The position numbers and the translations under genes are program-made. A DNA stretch of 58,336 nt, from positions 1-58,336 of IMG/VR virus record IMGVR_UViG_3300028196_000015. One strand, given 5' to 3'. Numbering within the stretch: the first letter of the stretch is position 1; every line of letters begins with the position of its first letter. This stretch comes from a virus. Under the pieces are notes generated by a model that had not been told where the DNA came from, made no database searches, and worked only from the letters and a program-made list of their open reading frames with translations. Positions 38,242 through 44,830 of this stretch are shown in pieces.

Positions 38242-40448
38242 TAGGTATCGTTTAGATTGGTTAAGAATATCTTTTTCATTAAACTATTTACCAAAGAAGT
38301 ATTGGAGGATGGAATAGGAATTAGTTGCTGAGAAGAACCTCCCCCACCAGATATAGAAGGTGCTCCACCCACACCACCAGAAGATGATGTGCTTGGTAAT
38401 GTTATAGGTACAATTTTAACTCCAGAACCTGGTTTATCATAAGATGGATAGTGTCTAATACTTTCTGGTGTCCTTTGTAGTCCTTTTGAATCTAATTCAA
38501 ACCCACCTATAGCATTGGGGTCTATTTGTCCTTTTGGTACTGCTGTTCCGATGGCAGTAGATAAACTTTCAATAAACTCATCAAATTTTTTGGTTTGTGT
38601 AAAATTCTTCCCATAATGCTTTTCCCAATCAACCATAACACCAAGTTCAACTAATGCTGTGGGTGATGCAGCACCAGCATTTACTGTTGCATTTCCCTGA
38701 GTGCTTGTTCTAAAACTTCCAAGTTCGGGATTGGAAGATGAAAATTCACTTAACGCAGTATTGATAGGTGCGGCAATATTTGAATCTTCATCGTCTCCAG
38801 GTCTTGTTATGGTCATGAATCCCGTACTTCCTTTGGCATCAAAATGAAGTGGTAAAACTCGAACACCCTTTTTAGATTGCGATTTGATATACTTATCATA
38901 TGCTTGATATGAAGAAAATGACTCTGGTTTTACAATAGCAACATTATATCCTTTTGCTTCTAACTTTGCTTTTAATTTTTCTGCAGCAGGATCTTGATGC
39001 TCACGTTCTCGACCATCAGCACCAGTTGATCTAGATTGTTCAAAAGATGTTTTGGCATCAGTATCTGGAAATTTTCCAGATAAAGAAGATGGAACATGGT
39101 CCAAAGGAATAATAATATCATGTGATCCTTTAGAAGAAATACCTGCCATTTTCTCTTTTTTAACCACATCTGGTGATGATTTTGAACCATATGCCCCATG
39201 ACCCACAAATGCTTGTGTTCCTGCAATTCTTCCTTGAACACCAAATCCATTAGATATTTCCTTAACATTTTTTATTCCAGGAATTGCAGTTCCTTTTGGT
39301 GCTGCAATATCAATTCCAGCATGAGAACTACCAGATTTTCTACTCACATGAGCATTCTGCTCTTGCTCGATATATTTCTGCAATGTTGCATCATCTGGTG
39401 GATTATCAGGATTTACGTTAATTTGTGCATTAGTAAATGTAAAAGGTATCTTTCTTGACAACAAATTCTTAGCAATTTTATACGCACCTTTCCTAGCAGC
39501 AGGAAAACCTTCTGGTTTACCATAAAGTTCATGATCTGGTCCAATATGAAAATGGTCACCACGAGAATCTCCAGTATTACCTTGTATAAAAGTATTTTCT
39601 CCTTCCAATCCTTTATGTAGATTATCGAGCATTGATGATTGGGGGTTTTCTGAAGGTGGTGCTTTGGGTAATAGTCCAAACCCAGTTAAAAAATTAGTGA
39701 ATTGATCGGAAAATCCTTTAAATGATCTCAAAAATCCGTCATAAGCATTTTTATCTTTTATATCTTTTAGAGAGTCTTTTTGTTCTTGTATGGACTCTGT
39801 TGTCACATCATCTTGTTTATTTTGTGTTGCTTCATACACTCTATCACCAACAAAACCTCCTAAAAAATCACCTGCCATACTACCCACAACAAATCCGAGA
39901 CCAGGAACAGGTATAAGTGCCTGTCCAATCATCCCTCCAAGTATTCCACCAGCAAGAGCTCCACCAGCACCTGCTGCTGCTTCTCCCATACTTTCCCCCT
40001 CCATCAATCCAGTAGCAAAATCAAGTCCTGCAAATATTGAATTTAAGATACCAATAGACTTTAACGGACCAAATTTTATTTTTGAACCAGAAAATTTAGG
40101 TTTTTTTGGTTTTCCTGATGGTTTTTGGGGTTTTCCTGTTGTTCCTTTTTGTGGATACATGCCCCCAAGTAAACCAGCGGTGTCTACGGCACCCGATGCG
40201 AAATTACTCAGTAAACTACCAGGATTACCAAATAAACCACCAACATTTAAATTTTGTAATTCCTTTATCTTTCTCTTCTTTGGAAGATTTATTGCATCCA
40301 AAGCATTTTTTTCTCTGTCAATTAATAGAGAAAATGATTCATAATCTTGCTGCATTTTTGGCAGTTCTCTTTTAGTTCTGCTATTGAATGCGGCAATATT
40401 ATTAAATGCCGATACTAATGGTGATGATACTGCTTTTGCTTTTGCCAT
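38241..40448 (-). CDS. Tail protein with M23-like and amidase-like domains
   Basis: A 735-residue protein. Residues about 160-205 are a Gly-rich hydrophobic zipper (GGALAGGILGGMIG). Near 373, SSHAGIDIAAPKG matches the M23 HxxxD site; GDHFHIGPD near 292 offers an HxH pair. Residues 441-610 resemble Amidase_3: IIPLDH, an EREHQDP segment, LPLHFDA and ALVELGVMVDWEKHYG. These suggest peptidoglycan digestion during injection. The last 100 residues share a repeat with the next protein. The activity is inferred; active-site residues are degenerate. It overlaps neighbours by 1 nt. Confidence 0.6.
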   Translation of the reverse strand: MAKAKAVSSPLVSAFNNIAAFNSRTKRELPKMQQDYESFSLLIDREKNALDAINLPKKRKIKELQNLNVGGLFGNPGSLLSNFASGAVDTAGLLGGMYPQKGTTGKPQKPSGKPKKPKFSGSKIKFGPLKSIGILNSIFAGLDFATGLMEGESMGEAAAGAGGALAGGILGGMIGQALIPVPGLGFVVGSMAGDFLGGFVGDRVYEATQNKQDDVTTESIQEQKDSLKDIKDKNAYDGFLRSFKGFSDQFTNFLTGFGLLPKAPPSENPQSSMLDNLHKGLEGENTFIQGNTGDSRGDHFHIGPDHELYGKPEGFPAARKGAYKIAKNLLSRKIPFTFTNAQINVNPDNPPDDATLQKYIEQEQNAHVSRKSGSSHAGIDIAAPKGTAIPGIKNVKEISNGFGVQGRIAGTQAFVGHGAYGSKSSPDVVKKEKMAGISSKGSHDIIIPLDHVPSSLSGKFPDTDAKTSFEQSRSTGADGREREHQDPAAEKLKAKLEAKGYNVAIVKPESFSSYQAYDKYIKSQSKKGVRVLPLHFDAKGSTGFMTITRPGDDEDSNIAAPINTALSEFSSSNPELGSFRTSTQGNATVNAGAASPTALVELGVMVDWEKHYGKNFTQTKKFDEFIESLSTAIGTAVPKGQIDPNAIGGFELDSKGLQRTPESIRHYPSYDKPGSGVKIVPITLPSTSSSGGVGGAPSISGGGGSSQQLIPIPSSNTSLVNSLMKKIFLTNLNDT
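38464..38527 (-). repeat. Duplicated segment, copy 1
   Basis: A 64-bp stretch encoding GGFELDSKGLQRTPE-type residues; 60 of 64 bases match 40683-40746 in the neighbouring gene. Confidence 0.75.
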
Positions 40449-42565
40449 TATCCGTCAACAATATTGTAAGTTAGTTTTGAATACATGGTTAAAAAGTTTT
40501 CACTATCACCAGATGCTAACTGTGGAACTGTTGGTCCTTCATTTTTACCTGGAAGAATAGTAGGAGAACCCCCTCCAGATGCTTGCTGTTGTGGTGCCGC
40601 ACCAGACAAATCTATTGGAACAACACTTGACGACCCACCACCAGAATCTGATGGTATTGGTTGAGATATTGATTCTATTTGTTCTGGTGCCCTTTGTAGT
40701 CCTCTTGGATCTAATTCAAACCCACCTGTAGCATTGGGGTCTATTTTTGCAACTGGAAGTTTTCCAATTTTACCACCAGGACCAAAGAAATAATTTCCTC
40801 CAGGACCTCTTCTCTTACCCTGTCCAGGATATCCTCTAAATGAAATTAAATCACTAACATAGTCACGAGATTGTGCTGCTACTGCAGTATTATTTTTGAA
40901 TTGCTTTAACACATTTGATGCCTGTGCTGCATTACCGGGTTTTCCGATAAAATCAGAAAAGTTTTGTATACCACCAGTACCACTAGTTAGTTCTTTTATT
41001 TTTTTAATTCTTTCTTCTGGTGTTTTTCCAAGTTTTGCTTTTATTGGACCATATACATCTTCTGCATCAGGGTCTTTACTTGGAATATCATATATCATTG
41101 ATGATATTGGAGTAAACTGTTCTCTCTCAGTCATCTGTCCAAATAAATCACCATAAGGTGTGAGTGGATTATCAACACGATTTAACGCTACTTGCATAAC
41201 ATCTGCTTGATTTTGTAATCCAGTTGCTTCTAATGTTGATGCAACAGCAGCCAGATTCTCACCTGCTACTGTAGAACCAGTAGTATCTCCTGTTGGTGTT
41301 GCTACTGGTGGTGCTGGTGATGGGTCATCATTTCTATCTTTACCTAAAAATCCAGATATCGTTCCAGCAAATCCATCAACAATACCTTTTAATGAATCAA
41401 GGAAATTAAATTTTTGATTTTCTTTTTCTTTTTGTATCTCGGGTTTATTTTCCAATGCATTTACTGCTCCAGCTCCACCAATCACCGCACCACCAACTGC
41501 TAATGGAGCTAGCAGTTTCCCTAGACCACGAGATCTACCACCTCTAGGTTTTACTTTACTTGCTGATTTACGTGGCATATTAACATCAAGATTAATACCA
41601 CTACCTCTACCTGAAGATGCTTTTGGTAGATTTGATAATTGTGAAACAATTTTAAATAAGGTTTGCCTTACTAACTTAGCAACCTCAAAACTTTCAGTAA
41701 ATGAAGTAACAAGATTCTTTAAATTTTTTCTTAATCCATCAACATTCTTTTTATTTGCAAAGAACTGTAAGAAACCTAAAGCATTATTATATGTGTCTAA
41801 GAACTTATCTAAAATATTTGTTGGTTTAGACGCATCAATATCTTTTATTTTCTTTTGATAGTCACCTGTTAATTTTTGTACTATGTTTGTTGTTTCTTGC
41901 CGTACATTTTTTAGAGTATTCTGAACTTGGGTTACTTGGGAACCCTGTGATTGTCTAACTTGCTGTATCTGAGTACTTAATCCTGCACCAACATCTGTTA
42001 TCTTTTTATCAACATTTCTATTCGTGATATTAGTTGACTTAGCAATCAACTGATTCACTTGGTTCATAATATTCTTTGGACCCATATTTCCACCTAAGGG
42101 GTCCTTAGTTTTTGATTCCTTTACTGAATCAATTTGTTTTTGTAAATCACCAGATATATTCTGAATTAATTTATTGTTTTCTTTGGTAATATTTTTAACA
42201 GAGGTTTGTAAATTCGTTATATTTGATTCTCTTCTCTCAACAATATTTCCTACTTGTCTAACTATTAATTTATTATTATCTTTTATTTTGTCACTAACTG
42301 TTCTGTTAACAAGGTTAGTGACGTTTTGTATTGCACTATTAAGTTCATTTTGTATATTACTAGAAATTGTATTAACAATAGAACTTATATCTGGATTAAC
42401 TGCCTTTACCGTTGCCTTCTGAAAACCAACATTTTGCTGCCCAGCAGCATCTACTACAGAGTTCTCAATTGGTGAACCACCAGTAATAAACTGCTGAAAT
42501 GAATCAAGACTTGCAGGTGGATTACCTGTAATTGCTTCTGGATTTATAGGTGGTCTAACGGGCAT
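40448..42565 (-). CDS. Tail protein with coiled coil and SleB-like wall-hydrolase domain
   Basis: A 705-residue protein. Residues about 60-330 form a long coiled coil with Asn/Gln/Ile repeats. A hydrophobic segment lies near 345-370 (LLAPLAVGGAVIGGAGAV). From about 438, ASTLEATGLQNQADVMQVAL then NRVDNPLTP looks like the SleB-type cell-wall hydrolase fold, up to about 600. The C-terminus shares a near-identical motif with the 735-residue protein. It may be a tape-measure or hub-associated protein; T4 gp29 is 590 residues. Confidence 0.6.
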   Translation of the reverse strand: MPVRPPINPEAITGNPPASLDSFQQFITGGSPIENSVVDAAGQQNVGFQKATVKAVNPDISSIVNTISSNIQNELNSAIQNVTNLVNRTVSDKIKDNNKLIVRQVGNIVERRESNITNLQTSVKNITKENNKLIQNISGDLQKQIDSVKESKTKDPLGGNMGPKNIMNQVNQLIAKSTNITNRNVDKKITDVGAGLSTQIQQVRQSQGSQVTQVQNTLKNVRQETTNIVQKLTGDYQKKIKDIDASKPTNILDKFLDTYNNALGFLQFFANKKNVDGLRKNLKNLVTSFTESFEVAKLVRQTLFKIVSQLSNLPKASSGRGSGINLDVNMPRKSASKVKPRGGRSRGLGKLLAPLAVGGAVIGGAGAVNALENKPEIQKEKENQKFNFLDSLKGIVDGFAGTISGFLGKDRNDDPSPAPPVATPTGDTTGSTVAGENLAAVASTLEATGLQNQADVMQVALNRVDNPLTPYGDLFGQMTEREQFTPISSMIYDIPSKDPDAEDVYGPIKAKLGKTPEERIKKIKELTSGTGGIQNFSDFIGKPGNAAQASNVLKQFKNNTAVAAQSRDYVSDLISFRGYPGQGKRRGPGGNYFFGPGGKIGKLPVAKIDPNATGGFELDPRGLQRAPEQIESISQPIPSDSGGGSSSVVPIDLSGAAPQQQASGGGSPTILPGKNEGPTVPQLASGDSENFLTMYSKLTYNIVDG
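40683..40746 (-). repeat. Duplicated segment, copy 2
   Basis: Matches 38464-38527 at 60 of 64 bases and encodes GGFELDPRGLQRAPE-type residues. It suggests recent duplication or gene conversion between adjacent tail genes. Confidence 0.75.
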
Positions 42566-42737
42566 TGTTTTGCTGTTGTTGTTTTAACTGTTCCTCTTCA
42601 ATATGCTGCTTCAAAAGTCCAACATAAACATCTCTTTCCCAAGGAATCATACTTTCTACCTCAGTCAAAGAATATTTATGAAACTGTAGCAAAGCAAAAT
42701 TTATTCTATAGTATGCCTCAAGATCCATATGAGACAT
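42555..42737 (-). CDS. 60-residue tail assembly partner of gp26
   Basis: A helical protein (YYRINFALLQFHKYSLTEVE; MIPWERDVYVGLL) ending in a Gln/Asn-rich tail. Helical ORFs of this kind directly after a tail-assembly gene are typical second halves of tail-assembly-chaperone pairs; in T4, gene 51 follows gene 26 here. It starts 2 nt after the gp26 stop and would be joined to gp26 by a -1 slip at TTTTTTC. It can also be read from its own ATG. Confidence 0.7.
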   Translation of the reverse strand: MSHMDLEAYYRINFALLQFHKYSLTEVESMIPWERDVYVGLLKQHIEEEQLKQQQQNNAR

Positions 42738-42739
42738 AA

Positions 42740-43471
42740 TCAGCCGAAAAAACTCGTTAATCCCTCCAACGTAACTGTATTTAACACACCAGTTTTAGGA
42801 TTCTTTACTGATATTGTGTGAGAAAGTTTTGGCATGGTTTGAAAAAACTTTTCAATTTCTTTAAATTGTTCTGAAGTTAAACCTTCAACAAATTCTAAAA
42901 GTTCTTGCTGCGTACAATCTGCACCAGCCCATGCTTCTTCTGCGTTAAAAACAGTATCAATACATGATGCAATAATATTAAATGACTTTTCAATATTACT
43001 TTCATCCTGAACATCATTAAAATCAAAATTATTTTTAATAAATTGATCTAATGATGGATACTTCATTCTCATTATTAAATCAGAACCCAAATTAATGTCA
43101 GGATTGTGATTTGTATCTTTATGAACTTTTACTTCATCAACAAACACAGTTACTGGAACTTGTGTGTTGCTATCATCATCATAACATGTAACTAAAAGAT
43201 CAATTGATTCACCTACAGATTTTCCTCTAACATTTAAGAAAATATATTCAATATCAAATGTTGGCAATTCATCTACTTTAATGTCTTTTGTTAAAATGCA
43301 CTCAGATAATACCTGTTTAATTGCATTTGTAATTTGCATTGCATCTCTTGTTTCTAATGCAATAATTAATACTTTTTCTTCTCTAACTAGAAATGGTCTG
43401 TATTTAATCTTTTTTTCGTTAGATGGTAATTCCAACTCATAAGTTGGGGTAGATATTTTTGGTAAAGGCAT
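42740..43471 (-). CDS. 26: gp26-like baseplate hub / assembly protein
   Basis: A 243-residue protein of the T4 gp26 (PF12322) type: N-terminal IKYRPFLVREEKVLIIALE near residues 22-40, LLVTCYDDD..., and a C-terminus QTMPKLSHTISVKNPKTG followed by LEGLTSFFG. T4 gp26 is 208 residues and acts in hub assembly. The last sense codons before the stop are AGT TTT TTC GGC, containing a slippery heptamer. It is a late gene in a leftward unit with the tail genes. CTAAATA at 43498-43504 lies upstream. Confidence 0.85.
   Translation of the reverse strand: MPLPKISTPTYELELPSNEKKIKYRPFLVREEKVLIIALETRDAMQITNAIKQVLSECILTKDIKVDELPTFDIEYIFLNVRGKSVGESIDLLVTCYDDDSNTQVPVTVFVDEVKVHKDTNHNPDINLGSDLIMRMKYPSLDQFIKNNFDFNDVQDESNIEKSFNIIASCIDTVFNAEEAWAGADCTQQELLEFVEGLTSEQFKEIEKFFQTMPKLSHTISVKNPKTGVLNTVTLEGLTSFFG
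42746..42752 (-). other. Candidate -1 ribosomal frameshift site T TTT TTC
   Basis: On the coding (minus) strand the gp26 frame reads AG-T TTT TTC GGC TGA. A -1 slip at T TTT TTC continues as CGG CTG ATT ATG and enters the frame of the 60-residue ORF, skipping the stop. The arrangement imitates the G/GT frameshift of lambda-type tail chaperones. Confidence 0.6.
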
Positions 43472-43500: not shown

Positions 43501-44325
43501 TTAGAATAGATTTCCAATTGCATTAAATATGTCGTCAAAGGTTGGAGTTATATTTCCAGTTGGTAGGGTTGATACATTACCACCATGCTTTTCATAAACA
43601 TATCTAGAGTATGAAAACTCAACAGTAACTTTTGTTATTGTGGAACCTTCATATGATAATGGAATTGCTGATATATTTGTTGGAAATGCATCAATTAGTC
43701 TATATGTTATTGTTGGTACACTTTGTAAGTTTTCACCCCCTTGTGATGGATTTTGTCTGAAATTCCTTTCAAATTTAACTATTGAAATAATTCTCTTATA
43801 ACTATCAGGATATCTCATCCTGAAAAATTGATTTCTATCTTTTTGATTGCCAAATCCTCTTGCTGATGGTGCTACTGGTCCATTAGAAGATTGTAACGGG
43901 TTTATATAATTCATCCATTCTTCAAATACTCTCATAATTTTATAGTCATTATCAATATAAAATGTTAATTGAACAGGAGCAAAAATTCTTCTTGTCGGAA
44001 ATCTTTCTATTACACCCTGACGAGAACCCATTTCCTCTGCAACATCAAAAGTTGCTCCTGGAATTACTGCTTCGGCACAGAAAAAATCATAATAAGTATT
44101 CATTGCTGCATCAATAGTTATACCACTTTGTTGCATCCAATCTAATAAATCATCACCTGCACTACCATTTCCCAGATGCAATGCAACTTTAAATTGACTA
44201 CTAAAAGATACGTTACCTAGTACGTCCATCCCACCAGCAAGTGTGAGACCCCCCTCATTTCTGGGAGTGGTCATCTTCATATATAATGGACCTAAATCTG
44301 GTTGTCCAGCGTTTTGATCTGCCAT
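43501..44325 (-). CDS. Tail-tube-fold protein, probably gp54 (tube initiator)
   Basis: A 274-residue protein with the beta pattern of tail-tube proteins: FSSQFKVALHLGN, CAEAVIPGATFDVAE, QLTFYIDNDYKIMRVFEEWM, and IPLSYEGSTITKVTVEFSYS. T4 gp54 (320 residues) initiates the tube on the baseplate; gp19 (163) is shorter. The size, and the gp48-bearing unit 38 nt away on the other strand, favour gp54, although a tube protein cannot be ruled out. No catalytic motif. Confidence 0.65.
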   Translation of the reverse strand: MADQNAGQPDLGPLYMKMTTPRNEGGLTLAGGMDVLGNVSFSSQFKVALHLGNGSAGDDLLDWMQQSGITIDAAMNTYYDFFCAEAVIPGATFDVAEEMGSRQGVIERFPTRRIFAPVQLTFYIDNDYKIMRVFEEWMNYINPLQSSNGPVAPSARGFGNQKDRNQFFRMRYPDSYKRIISIVKFERNFRQNPSQGGENLQSVPTITYRLIDAFPTNISAIPLSYEGSTITKVTVEFSYSRYVYEKHGGNVSTLPTGNITPTFDDIFNAIGNLF

Positions 44326-44362: not shown

Positions 44363-44830
44363 ATGCCACATAAAGACGACTCTGGTTATAGACAAGGCAA
44401 ATTTAAACCACAAAAACCAGAAAAATATAAAGGTGACCCAACAAAAATTATTTATAGGTCATCATATGAATTAAAGTTTATGCGATATTGTGATTTGACT
44501 GAAAGTGTAAACGAATGGAGGTCTGAGGAGTTTTTTATACCATACCGTTCACCTTTAGATAATAAGTTTCACAGGTATTTTCCAGATTTCTTTGTGAAAT
44601 ATAAAGACAAAAATGGAACGATAAGAACTATGGTTGTAGAAATCAAACCACAAAAAGACTTAAAAATGCCTGAACAAAAACCTAAACGTAAAACAAAATC
44701 TTGGGCTTATAGTGTAAAAACTTGGGCAGTTAATCAGGCAAAATGGGAAGCAGCAAAAGAATGGTGTGCTGATAGAAAATATGAATTTAAAATACTTACC
44801 GAAAAGGAGTTGGGAATAAAACTAAAATGA
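44363..44830 (+). CDS. 4: gp4 head completion protein
   Basis: A 155-residue protein of the T4 gp4 (gp50) family. The pattern SSYELKFMRYCD, YFPDFFVKY and MVVEIKP corresponds to the E...PD...ExK residues of a TnsA/PD-(D/E)XK-like fold. gp4 closes the packaged head before tail joining. The sequence is basic and Lys-rich. It is first in the rightward late unit and overlaps the next gene by 4 nt. Confidence 0.85.
   Translation: MPHKDDSGYRQGKFKPQKPEKYKGDPTKIIYRSSYELKFMRYCDLTESVNEWRSEEFFIPYRSPLDNKFHRYFPDFFVKYKDKNGTIRTMVVEIKPQKDLKMPEQKPKRKTKSWAYSVKTWAVNQAKWEAAKEWCADRKYEFKILTEKELGIKLK

What the first reader, a model, noticed from the sequence alone, without database searches (positions are those of the whole stretch)
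42555..43471. Possible programmed -1 frameshift fusing gp26 to the next ORF
Seen: gp26 ends AG-T TTT TTC GGC TGA on the minus strand; T TTT TTC is a perfect X XXY YYZ slippery heptamer, two codons before the stop. The -1 frame runs CGG CTG ATT ATG into the downstream 60-residue helical ORF without a stop. Known: -1 slippage joins two tail-assembly-chaperone ORFs in many tailed phages (lambda G/GT). I recall no report for T4-like gp26/gp51. Inference: gp26 and this ORF form such a chaperone pair.
Basis: partly seen in the sequence, partly recalled or inferred. Interest (0 to 1): 0.82.

Follow-up and report, generated by a model that had tools for sequence, protein, structure and literature searches.

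The report
Frameshift-made tail chaperone in a cyanophage
This virus of cyanobacteria very probably makes two versions of a tail-building helper protein by letting some ribosomes slip back one letter, a trick known from phage lambda and already reported for relatives of phage T4; here the full slip signal is visible and conserved across many relatives.

Summary
gp26 (43471-42740, -) ends AGT TTT TTC GGC TGA, and its -1 frame runs unbroken into the 60-codon ORF. In 166 representatives of 325 gp26 loci the -1 frame is always open (at least 105 nt), and 162 keep an in-frame T TTT TTN, even where the second codon changes from Phe to Leu. Both exceed synonymous-codon expectation across relatives, and the hairpin has compensatory changes. 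53 of 162 relatives have no ATG, GTG or TTG from which the second ORF could start on its own before its conserved core. T4-type gp51 matches the conceptual fusion across the junction, and the gene order resembles lambda V-G-T-H. The chaperone-frameshift interpretation is therefore supported. [quoted passage not shown] I could not read that paper. No experiment yet shows the fusion protein.

The parts
42740..43471 (-). gp26 = putative TAC-N, 243 aa (0-frame product)
   Evidence: PF12322 T4_baseplate 1.5e-68, phrog_150 1.3e-74; AlphaFold pLDDT 90.7
42763..42767 (-). Internal Shine-Dalgarno-like GGAGG, 10 nt 5' of the slip site
   Evidence: Direct reading; duplex with anti-SD -9.5 kcal/mol in the window; relatives below the synonymous null, t about -9
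42746..42752 (-). Slippery heptamer T_TTT_TTC
   Evidence: T_TTT_TTN in 162/166 representatives
42740..42742 (-). 0-frame stop TGA of gp26
42730..42738 (-). 5' arm of the 3' stimulatory hairpin (TATGTCTCA), 7-nt spacer after the heptamer
42712..42720 (-). 3' arm of the hairpin (TGAGGCATA); loop 42721-42729
   Evidence: compensatory changes in three pairs
42555..42752 (-). -1 frame segment fused after the slip (FF-RLI-MSHM...), gives TAC-NC of 305 aa; annotated-type ORF 42737-42555 (60 aa) is its TAC-C part
   Evidence: phrog_634 3.4e-26; fusion matches phrog_150 with 289.9 bits over residues 1-290
43501..44325 (-). Upstream tail tube-like protein, 274 aa
   Evidence: PF23849 Phage_TTP_2 2.9e-19, phrog_45 7.6e-37
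40448..42565 (-). Downstream 705-aa protein, candidate tape measure (by position, N-terminal coiled-coil-like half, hydrophobic stretch aa 351-369)
   Evidence: Only weak coiled-coil-type matches; position and hydrophobicity; inference

Best explanation
A -1 programmed ribosomal frameshift. Most ribosomes stop at the gp26 TGA and make TAC-N (243 aa). A fraction reach U_UUU_UUC while an internal Shine-Dalgarno (GGAGG, 10 nt upstream) is free to pair with 16S rRNA and a hairpin 7 nt downstream blocks the entry channel. The two tRNA-Phe re-pair one base back (UUU UUU) and translation continues ...TSFF-RLI-MSHMDLE... to give TAC-NC (305 aa). By analogy with lambda gpG/gpGT, TAC-N coats the tape measure protein (probably the next gene) and the C-terminal domain of the minor TAC-NC recruits tail tube subunits. 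Shown here by sequence and comparison: frame, slip site, both stimulators, conservation. Inferred: that the shift happens, its efficiency, and the chaperone function.
For: Frame and heptamer; 162/166 with T TTT TTN and 166/166 open -1 frame; base run kept over the amino acid (18 loci F to L) and T always before it; SD-like element below the synonymous-codon null, -6.07 against -4.61 kcal/mol, t -9.3, at a gap of 7 nt between the 8-nt window and the heptamer; hairpin peaks exactly 3' of the site (MFE minus shuffled -4.2 kcal/mol, t -10), is 5.3 kcal/mol below a synonymous null (t -15; control segment 60 nt further on t -0.8), and covaries (32 cells with both sides changed against 8.8 shuffled, 84.7% paired against 24-49% when slid); no start codon for the second ORF in 53/162; 95%-identical independent contigs carry the same arrangement; T4-type gp51 aligns across the junction of the fusion profile, i-E 1.4e-12 with search size set to 1,000; the joined protein scores 289.9 bits to phrog_150 against 252.1 + 23.1 for the parts; SD 10 nt 5' and a 3' stem-loop are the known dnaX stimulators (PMC5009743).
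Against: No protein or ribosome-profiling data. In the window itself an ATG lies 2 nt after the stop, so separate initiation of the 60-aa ORF is not excluded here. The simple hairpin search with fixed settings gave no hairpin at or below -5 kcal/mol in about 38% of representatives. Ackermannviridae and Vibrio D495 lack a canonical heptamer although the -1 frame is open. The structural match of gp26 to a solved tail chaperone (HK97, 2ob9) is not significant (E 2.7).
Confidence: 0.92

Rival explanations
1. Two separate proteins by translational coupling: ribosomes ending at TGA re-start at the ATG 2 nt downstream and make a free 60-aa gp51-like protein; the T run is incidental.
For: TGATTATG geometry in the window; GenBank records annotate gp51 as its own CDS in several relatives.
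Against: 53/162 representatives have no ATG, GTG or TTG before the conserved core and 14 more have only GTG/TTG; GGAGG is 25 nt from the ATG, too far for initiation but at the dnaX distance from the slip site; coupling does not explain conserved T TTT TTN, a T in front of it, or the hairpin.
Confidence: 0.04
2. RNA polymerase slippage on the T6 run makes a mixed mRNA population, so that the fusion is produced by standard decoding of longer or shorter mRNAs.
For: A run of six T is a minimal kind of sequence on which transcriptional slippage could occur (general knowledge).
Against: The run stays at six T in nearly all loci (129/166 TTTTTTC at the same place; TTTTTTT in only 7 of the 162 with the run) although transcriptional slippage would favour longer runs; it would not need an SD element at 10 nt and a hairpin 3' of the run, which are ribosomal stimulators.
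Confidence: 0.03
3. Chance run plus conserved Phe-Phe at the C-terminus of gp26 (protein constraint only), with no frameshifting.
For: LEGLxSFF is a conserved C-terminal motif of gp26.
Against: Nucleotides are kept where the residue changes (18 F to L); the first Phe is TTT and the preceding base T in 162/162 against about 109 and 98 expected.
Confidence: 0.01

Closest known systems
Phage lambda gpG/gpGT tail assembly chaperones (and the widespread G-T type)
   Same: -1 frameshift a few codons before the stop of the first ORF; gene order tube, TAC-N, TAC-C, tape measure; short C-terminal domain in the -1 frame
   Different: Slip site U_UUU_UUC rather than lambda's G_GGA_AAG (lambda site from memory); N-domain is the T4 gp26 family (PF12322); clear SD and hairpin stimulators
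Tail assembly chaperones of T4-like phages (Vladimirov, Gautam and Davidson 2022, Virology 566:9-15)
   Same: Same gene family; poly-T slip signals in TAC-N genes of T4-like phages are credited to this paper in PMC12846349
   Different: Paper not held, so overlap for cyanophages and for the SD and hairpin elements could not be checked; T4 itself uses two separate genes (title; one search agrees that T4-type gp51 is a full N+C protein)
E. coli dnaX -1 frameshift cassette
   Same: Three-part design: SD 10 nt 5', slippery heptamer, simple 3' stem-loop (PMC5009743)
   Different: Unrelated gene; in dnaX the frameshift gives the shorter product and occurs at about 50%
Vandenendeviridae/Andersonviridae TAC locus (phage Adele, PMC12846349)
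   Same: Conserved -1 open frame past the TAC-N stop with an invariant GTTTTT motif near the end
   Different: Different phage families and motif; stimulators not described in the passages read

Membership tests
-1 programmed ribosomal frameshift site (X_XXY_YYZ type) | In-frame X_XXY_YYZ heptamer shortly before the 0-frame stop | tested here: met
   T_TTT_TTC at 42752-42746; 162/166 representatives
-1 programmed ribosomal frameshift site (X_XXY_YYZ type) | Open -1 frame joining a conserved coding region | tested here: met
   166/166 open at least 105 nt; aligned TAC-C peptides
-1 programmed ribosomal frameshift site (X_XXY_YYZ type) | Stimulators: 5' SD at about 10 nt and/or 3' structure after a short spacer | tested here: met
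   GGAGG at 10 nt; 9-bp hairpin with 7-nt spacer, covariation and synonymous control
-1 programmed ribosomal frameshift site (X_XXY_YYZ type) | Fusion protein produced in vivo | not testable with these tools
   Needs reporter, ribosome profiling or mass spectrometry
Tail assembly chaperone pair TAC-N/TAC-NC | Lies between the tail tube gene and the tape measure gene | tested here: inconclusive
   Tube-like gene upstream met (phrog_45); the 705-aa downstream gene is a tape measure only by position and weak coiled-coil features
Tail assembly chaperone pair TAC-N/TAC-NC | Long form = N domain plus short C domain, as separate gene 51 in T4 | tested here: met
   Fusion profile matches T4-type gp51 across the junction, gp26 over the N domain only
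Tail assembly chaperone pair TAC-N/TAC-NC | N domain shares fold with known TAC structures | tested here: inconclusive
   Two chains of HK97 TAC (2ob9) appear in the PDB search, with TMt 0.41/0.38 but E 2.7/7.4 and prob 0.21/0.13
Tail assembly chaperone pair TAC-N/TAC-NC | Absent from the virion, required for tail assembly | not testable with these tools
   For T4, gp26 and gp51 are listed as hub assembly chaperones and gp51 is absent from the final particle (PMC3004832)

The most novel reading that the evidence does not exclude
T4-like cyanophages and several other T4-related groups use a complete dnaX-type cassette (SD + U_UUU_UUN + hairpin), which would give a much higher TAC-NC share than lambda's 1 in 30; T4's split into genes 26 and 51 would then be a replacement of an efficient frameshift, and the long form would be a near-stoichiometric part of the chaperone complex.
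Probability: 0.3. Interest if true: 0.5.

Novelty: new member of a known kind. Interest (0 to 1): 0.36.

Why it matters
It corrects annotation: the cyanophage 'baseplate hub assembly catalyst gp51' is most likely not a separate protein but the C-terminal end of a frameshifted gp26. It is annotated as its own CDS, started at an internal ATG or missed in the records seen, and none of the 15 examined marks a frameshift. It also points to the candidate tape measure gene of these abundant viruses, and gives a compact frameshift cassette with natural variants for testing how SD, slip site and hairpin set a protein ratio.

Tried and rejected
Independent start of the second ORF (rejected as the general mechanism). 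Protein constraint alone on Phe-Phe. +1 frameshift (frame open in only 1/166). PDB sequence search with the gp26 profile found nothing relevant and the fold search gave no significant solved structure. NCBIfam had no model for gp26, the 60-aa ORF or the fusion. The 2022 Virology paper is not in the library; its content is taken from its title and from citing papers only.

Full report
What is there. The window is a 58,336-base virus record, a T4-like cyanophage by its gp26 relatives (best GenBank match 66.7%, Synechococcus phage S-SCSM2R). On the minus strand gp26 (43471-42740; PF12322, phrog_150) ends ...TTG GAG GGA TTA ACG AGT TTT TTC GGC TGA. The next ORF (42737-42555, 60 aa) lies in the -1 frame and matches phrog_634, 'baseplate hub assembly catalyst', and also the last part of phrog_150. 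The -1 frame is continuous from the slip site to 42555.

Is it more than chance. I collected gp26 loci without using the motif: IMG/VR scans with six different gp26 queries and 15 GenBank phages. 325 loci had a readable junction; 166 representatives remained after clustering at 85% nucleotide identity. 162 carry an in-frame T TTT TTN at the end of gp26 (129 have T TTT TTC ending one codon before the stop). All 166 have the -1 frame open for at least 105 nt past the stop; one has the +1 frame open. The exceptions are a Mosigvirus (T4 proper type, where the -1 frame leads into the next gene, annotated as a baseplate wedge subunit), two Ackermannviridae and Vibrio phage D495. In the window, T_TTT_TTN occurs in frame 8 times in 15,883 codon positions of ORFs of at least 150 aa, and only here within 12 codons of a stop. 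Codon choice shows that the bases, not only the residues, are kept: the first Phe is TTT in 162/162 (about 109 expected), the preceding codon ends in T in 162/162 (about 98 expected) mostly through AGT, TCT, GAT, AAT or GCT, and in 18 loci the second Phe has become Leu (TTA or TTG) with the T run intact. These expectations ignore relatedness, and the loci were picked for holding TTTTTT (162 of 166), so they are descriptive.

Stimulators. GGAGG lies at 42767-42763, exactly 10 nt before the heptamer. [quoted passage not shown] elsewhere in the gene a comparable minimum is -2.2. Downstream, a 9-bp hairpin (42738-42730 with 42720-42712, 9-nt loop) starts 7 nt after the heptamer. Scanning 40-nt windows from -160 to +120 gives one sharp minimum at the window starting 10 nt from the heptamer start (-4.2 kcal/mol against shuffles, t -10). 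Against a synonymous-codon null in the -1 frame the region is 5.3 kcal/mol more stable (t -15), while a control segment 60 nt further on shows nothing (t -0.8). In 59 related sequences three pairs show changes on both sides (for example CUC/GAG, CGC/GCG, CAC/GUG) and the pairing collapses when slid. Other groups carry a different hairpin at the same place, such as GCCCTC...GAGGGC or GGGCTCTC...GAGAGCCT. SD at 10 nt and a simple stem-loop are the documented stimulators of E. coli dnaX (PMC5009743).

Separate gene or fusion. In 53 of 162 representatives there is no ATG, GTG or TTG in the -1 frame before the conserved core, and in 14 more only GTG or TTG; in some (L287, L261, L309) the gp26 stop lies well inside the second reading frame. 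The joined protein of the window (305 aa) matches phrog_150 continuously over residues 1-290 with 289.9 bits, more than the two parts give apart (252.1 and 23.1). T4-type gp51 (Escherichia phage WFK) aligns to the fusion profile across the junction (i-E 1.4e-12 with search size 1,000), while its gp26 aligns to the N-part only. So T4-type phages appear to have both forms as separate genes, and the cyanophages appear to get the long form by frameshifting.

Function. Upstream is a tail tube-like gene, downstream a 705-aa gene with coiled-coil-type weak matches and one hydrophobic stretch, giving the lambda order V-G-T-H if the latter is the tape measure, which I infer and did not show. The AlphaFold model of gp26 is confident (pLDDT 90.7). 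It matches gp26-type viral proteins. Among solved structures no match is significant, though both chains of the HK97 tail assembly chaperone (2ob9) are listed, one with the highest probability in the rows shown (0.21; E 2.7). In T4, gp26 and gp51 are listed as hub assembly chaperones, and gp51 is absent from the particle (PMC3004832).

Prior knowledge. [quoted passage not shown] not held). PMC12846349 credits it with poly-T -1 frameshift signals in TAC-N genes of T4-like phages. From memory, its abstract says that frameshifting is conserved in several T4-like groups and that T4 itself uses separate genes 26 and 51. An earlier review still says G-T frameshifting is conserved 'except T4' (PMC5009743). 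Whether the 2022 paper covers cyanophages or the two stimulators I could not check.

Verdict. What this work adds is the quantified three-part cassette and the evidence that many relatives cannot start the second ORF on their own.

Noticed in passing
L088, L090 (Ackermannviridae), L085 (Vibrio phage D495): The -1 frame past the gp26 stop is open and encodes a TAC-C-like product, but there is no X_XXY_YYZ heptamer (ATT TTC or CTT TTC instead); no start codon is apparent just after the stop in the two Ackermannviridae, while D495 has an overlapping TAATG. The shift mechanism there is unexplained.
   Followed up: partly
L084 (Aeromonas phage Aeh1), L093 (P-HM2), many records: gp51/TAC-C is unannotated or started at an internal ATG in GenBank; none of the 15 records examined marks a frameshift join.
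   Followed up: partly
40448..42565: 705-aa protein with coiled-coil-like N half and a hydrophobic stretch (aa 351-369); candidate tape measure. Weak ZorA-type coiled-coil match (1.7e-4, far below cut-off). Annotated neighbours in relatives are called chitinase, endolysin or peptidase.
   Followed up: partly
44363..44830: Head closure gp4-like protein with TnsA-type nuclease fold (PF08722, phrog_218) on the opposite strand, next to the tail block.
   Followed up: no
L079:1856-3600: The TAC-C frame is altered after MPWE and runs on into the long downstream ORF (1,766 nt open); possibly an assembly error or a real deletion fusing TAC-C to the next gene.
   Followed up: no
42741..42770: The SD-like element and slip site can themselves pair in the free RNA (predicted 12-bp GU-rich stem); in some relatives GAGGG could also pair with CCCTC after the stop. 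A possible alternative fold, not tested.
   Followed up: no
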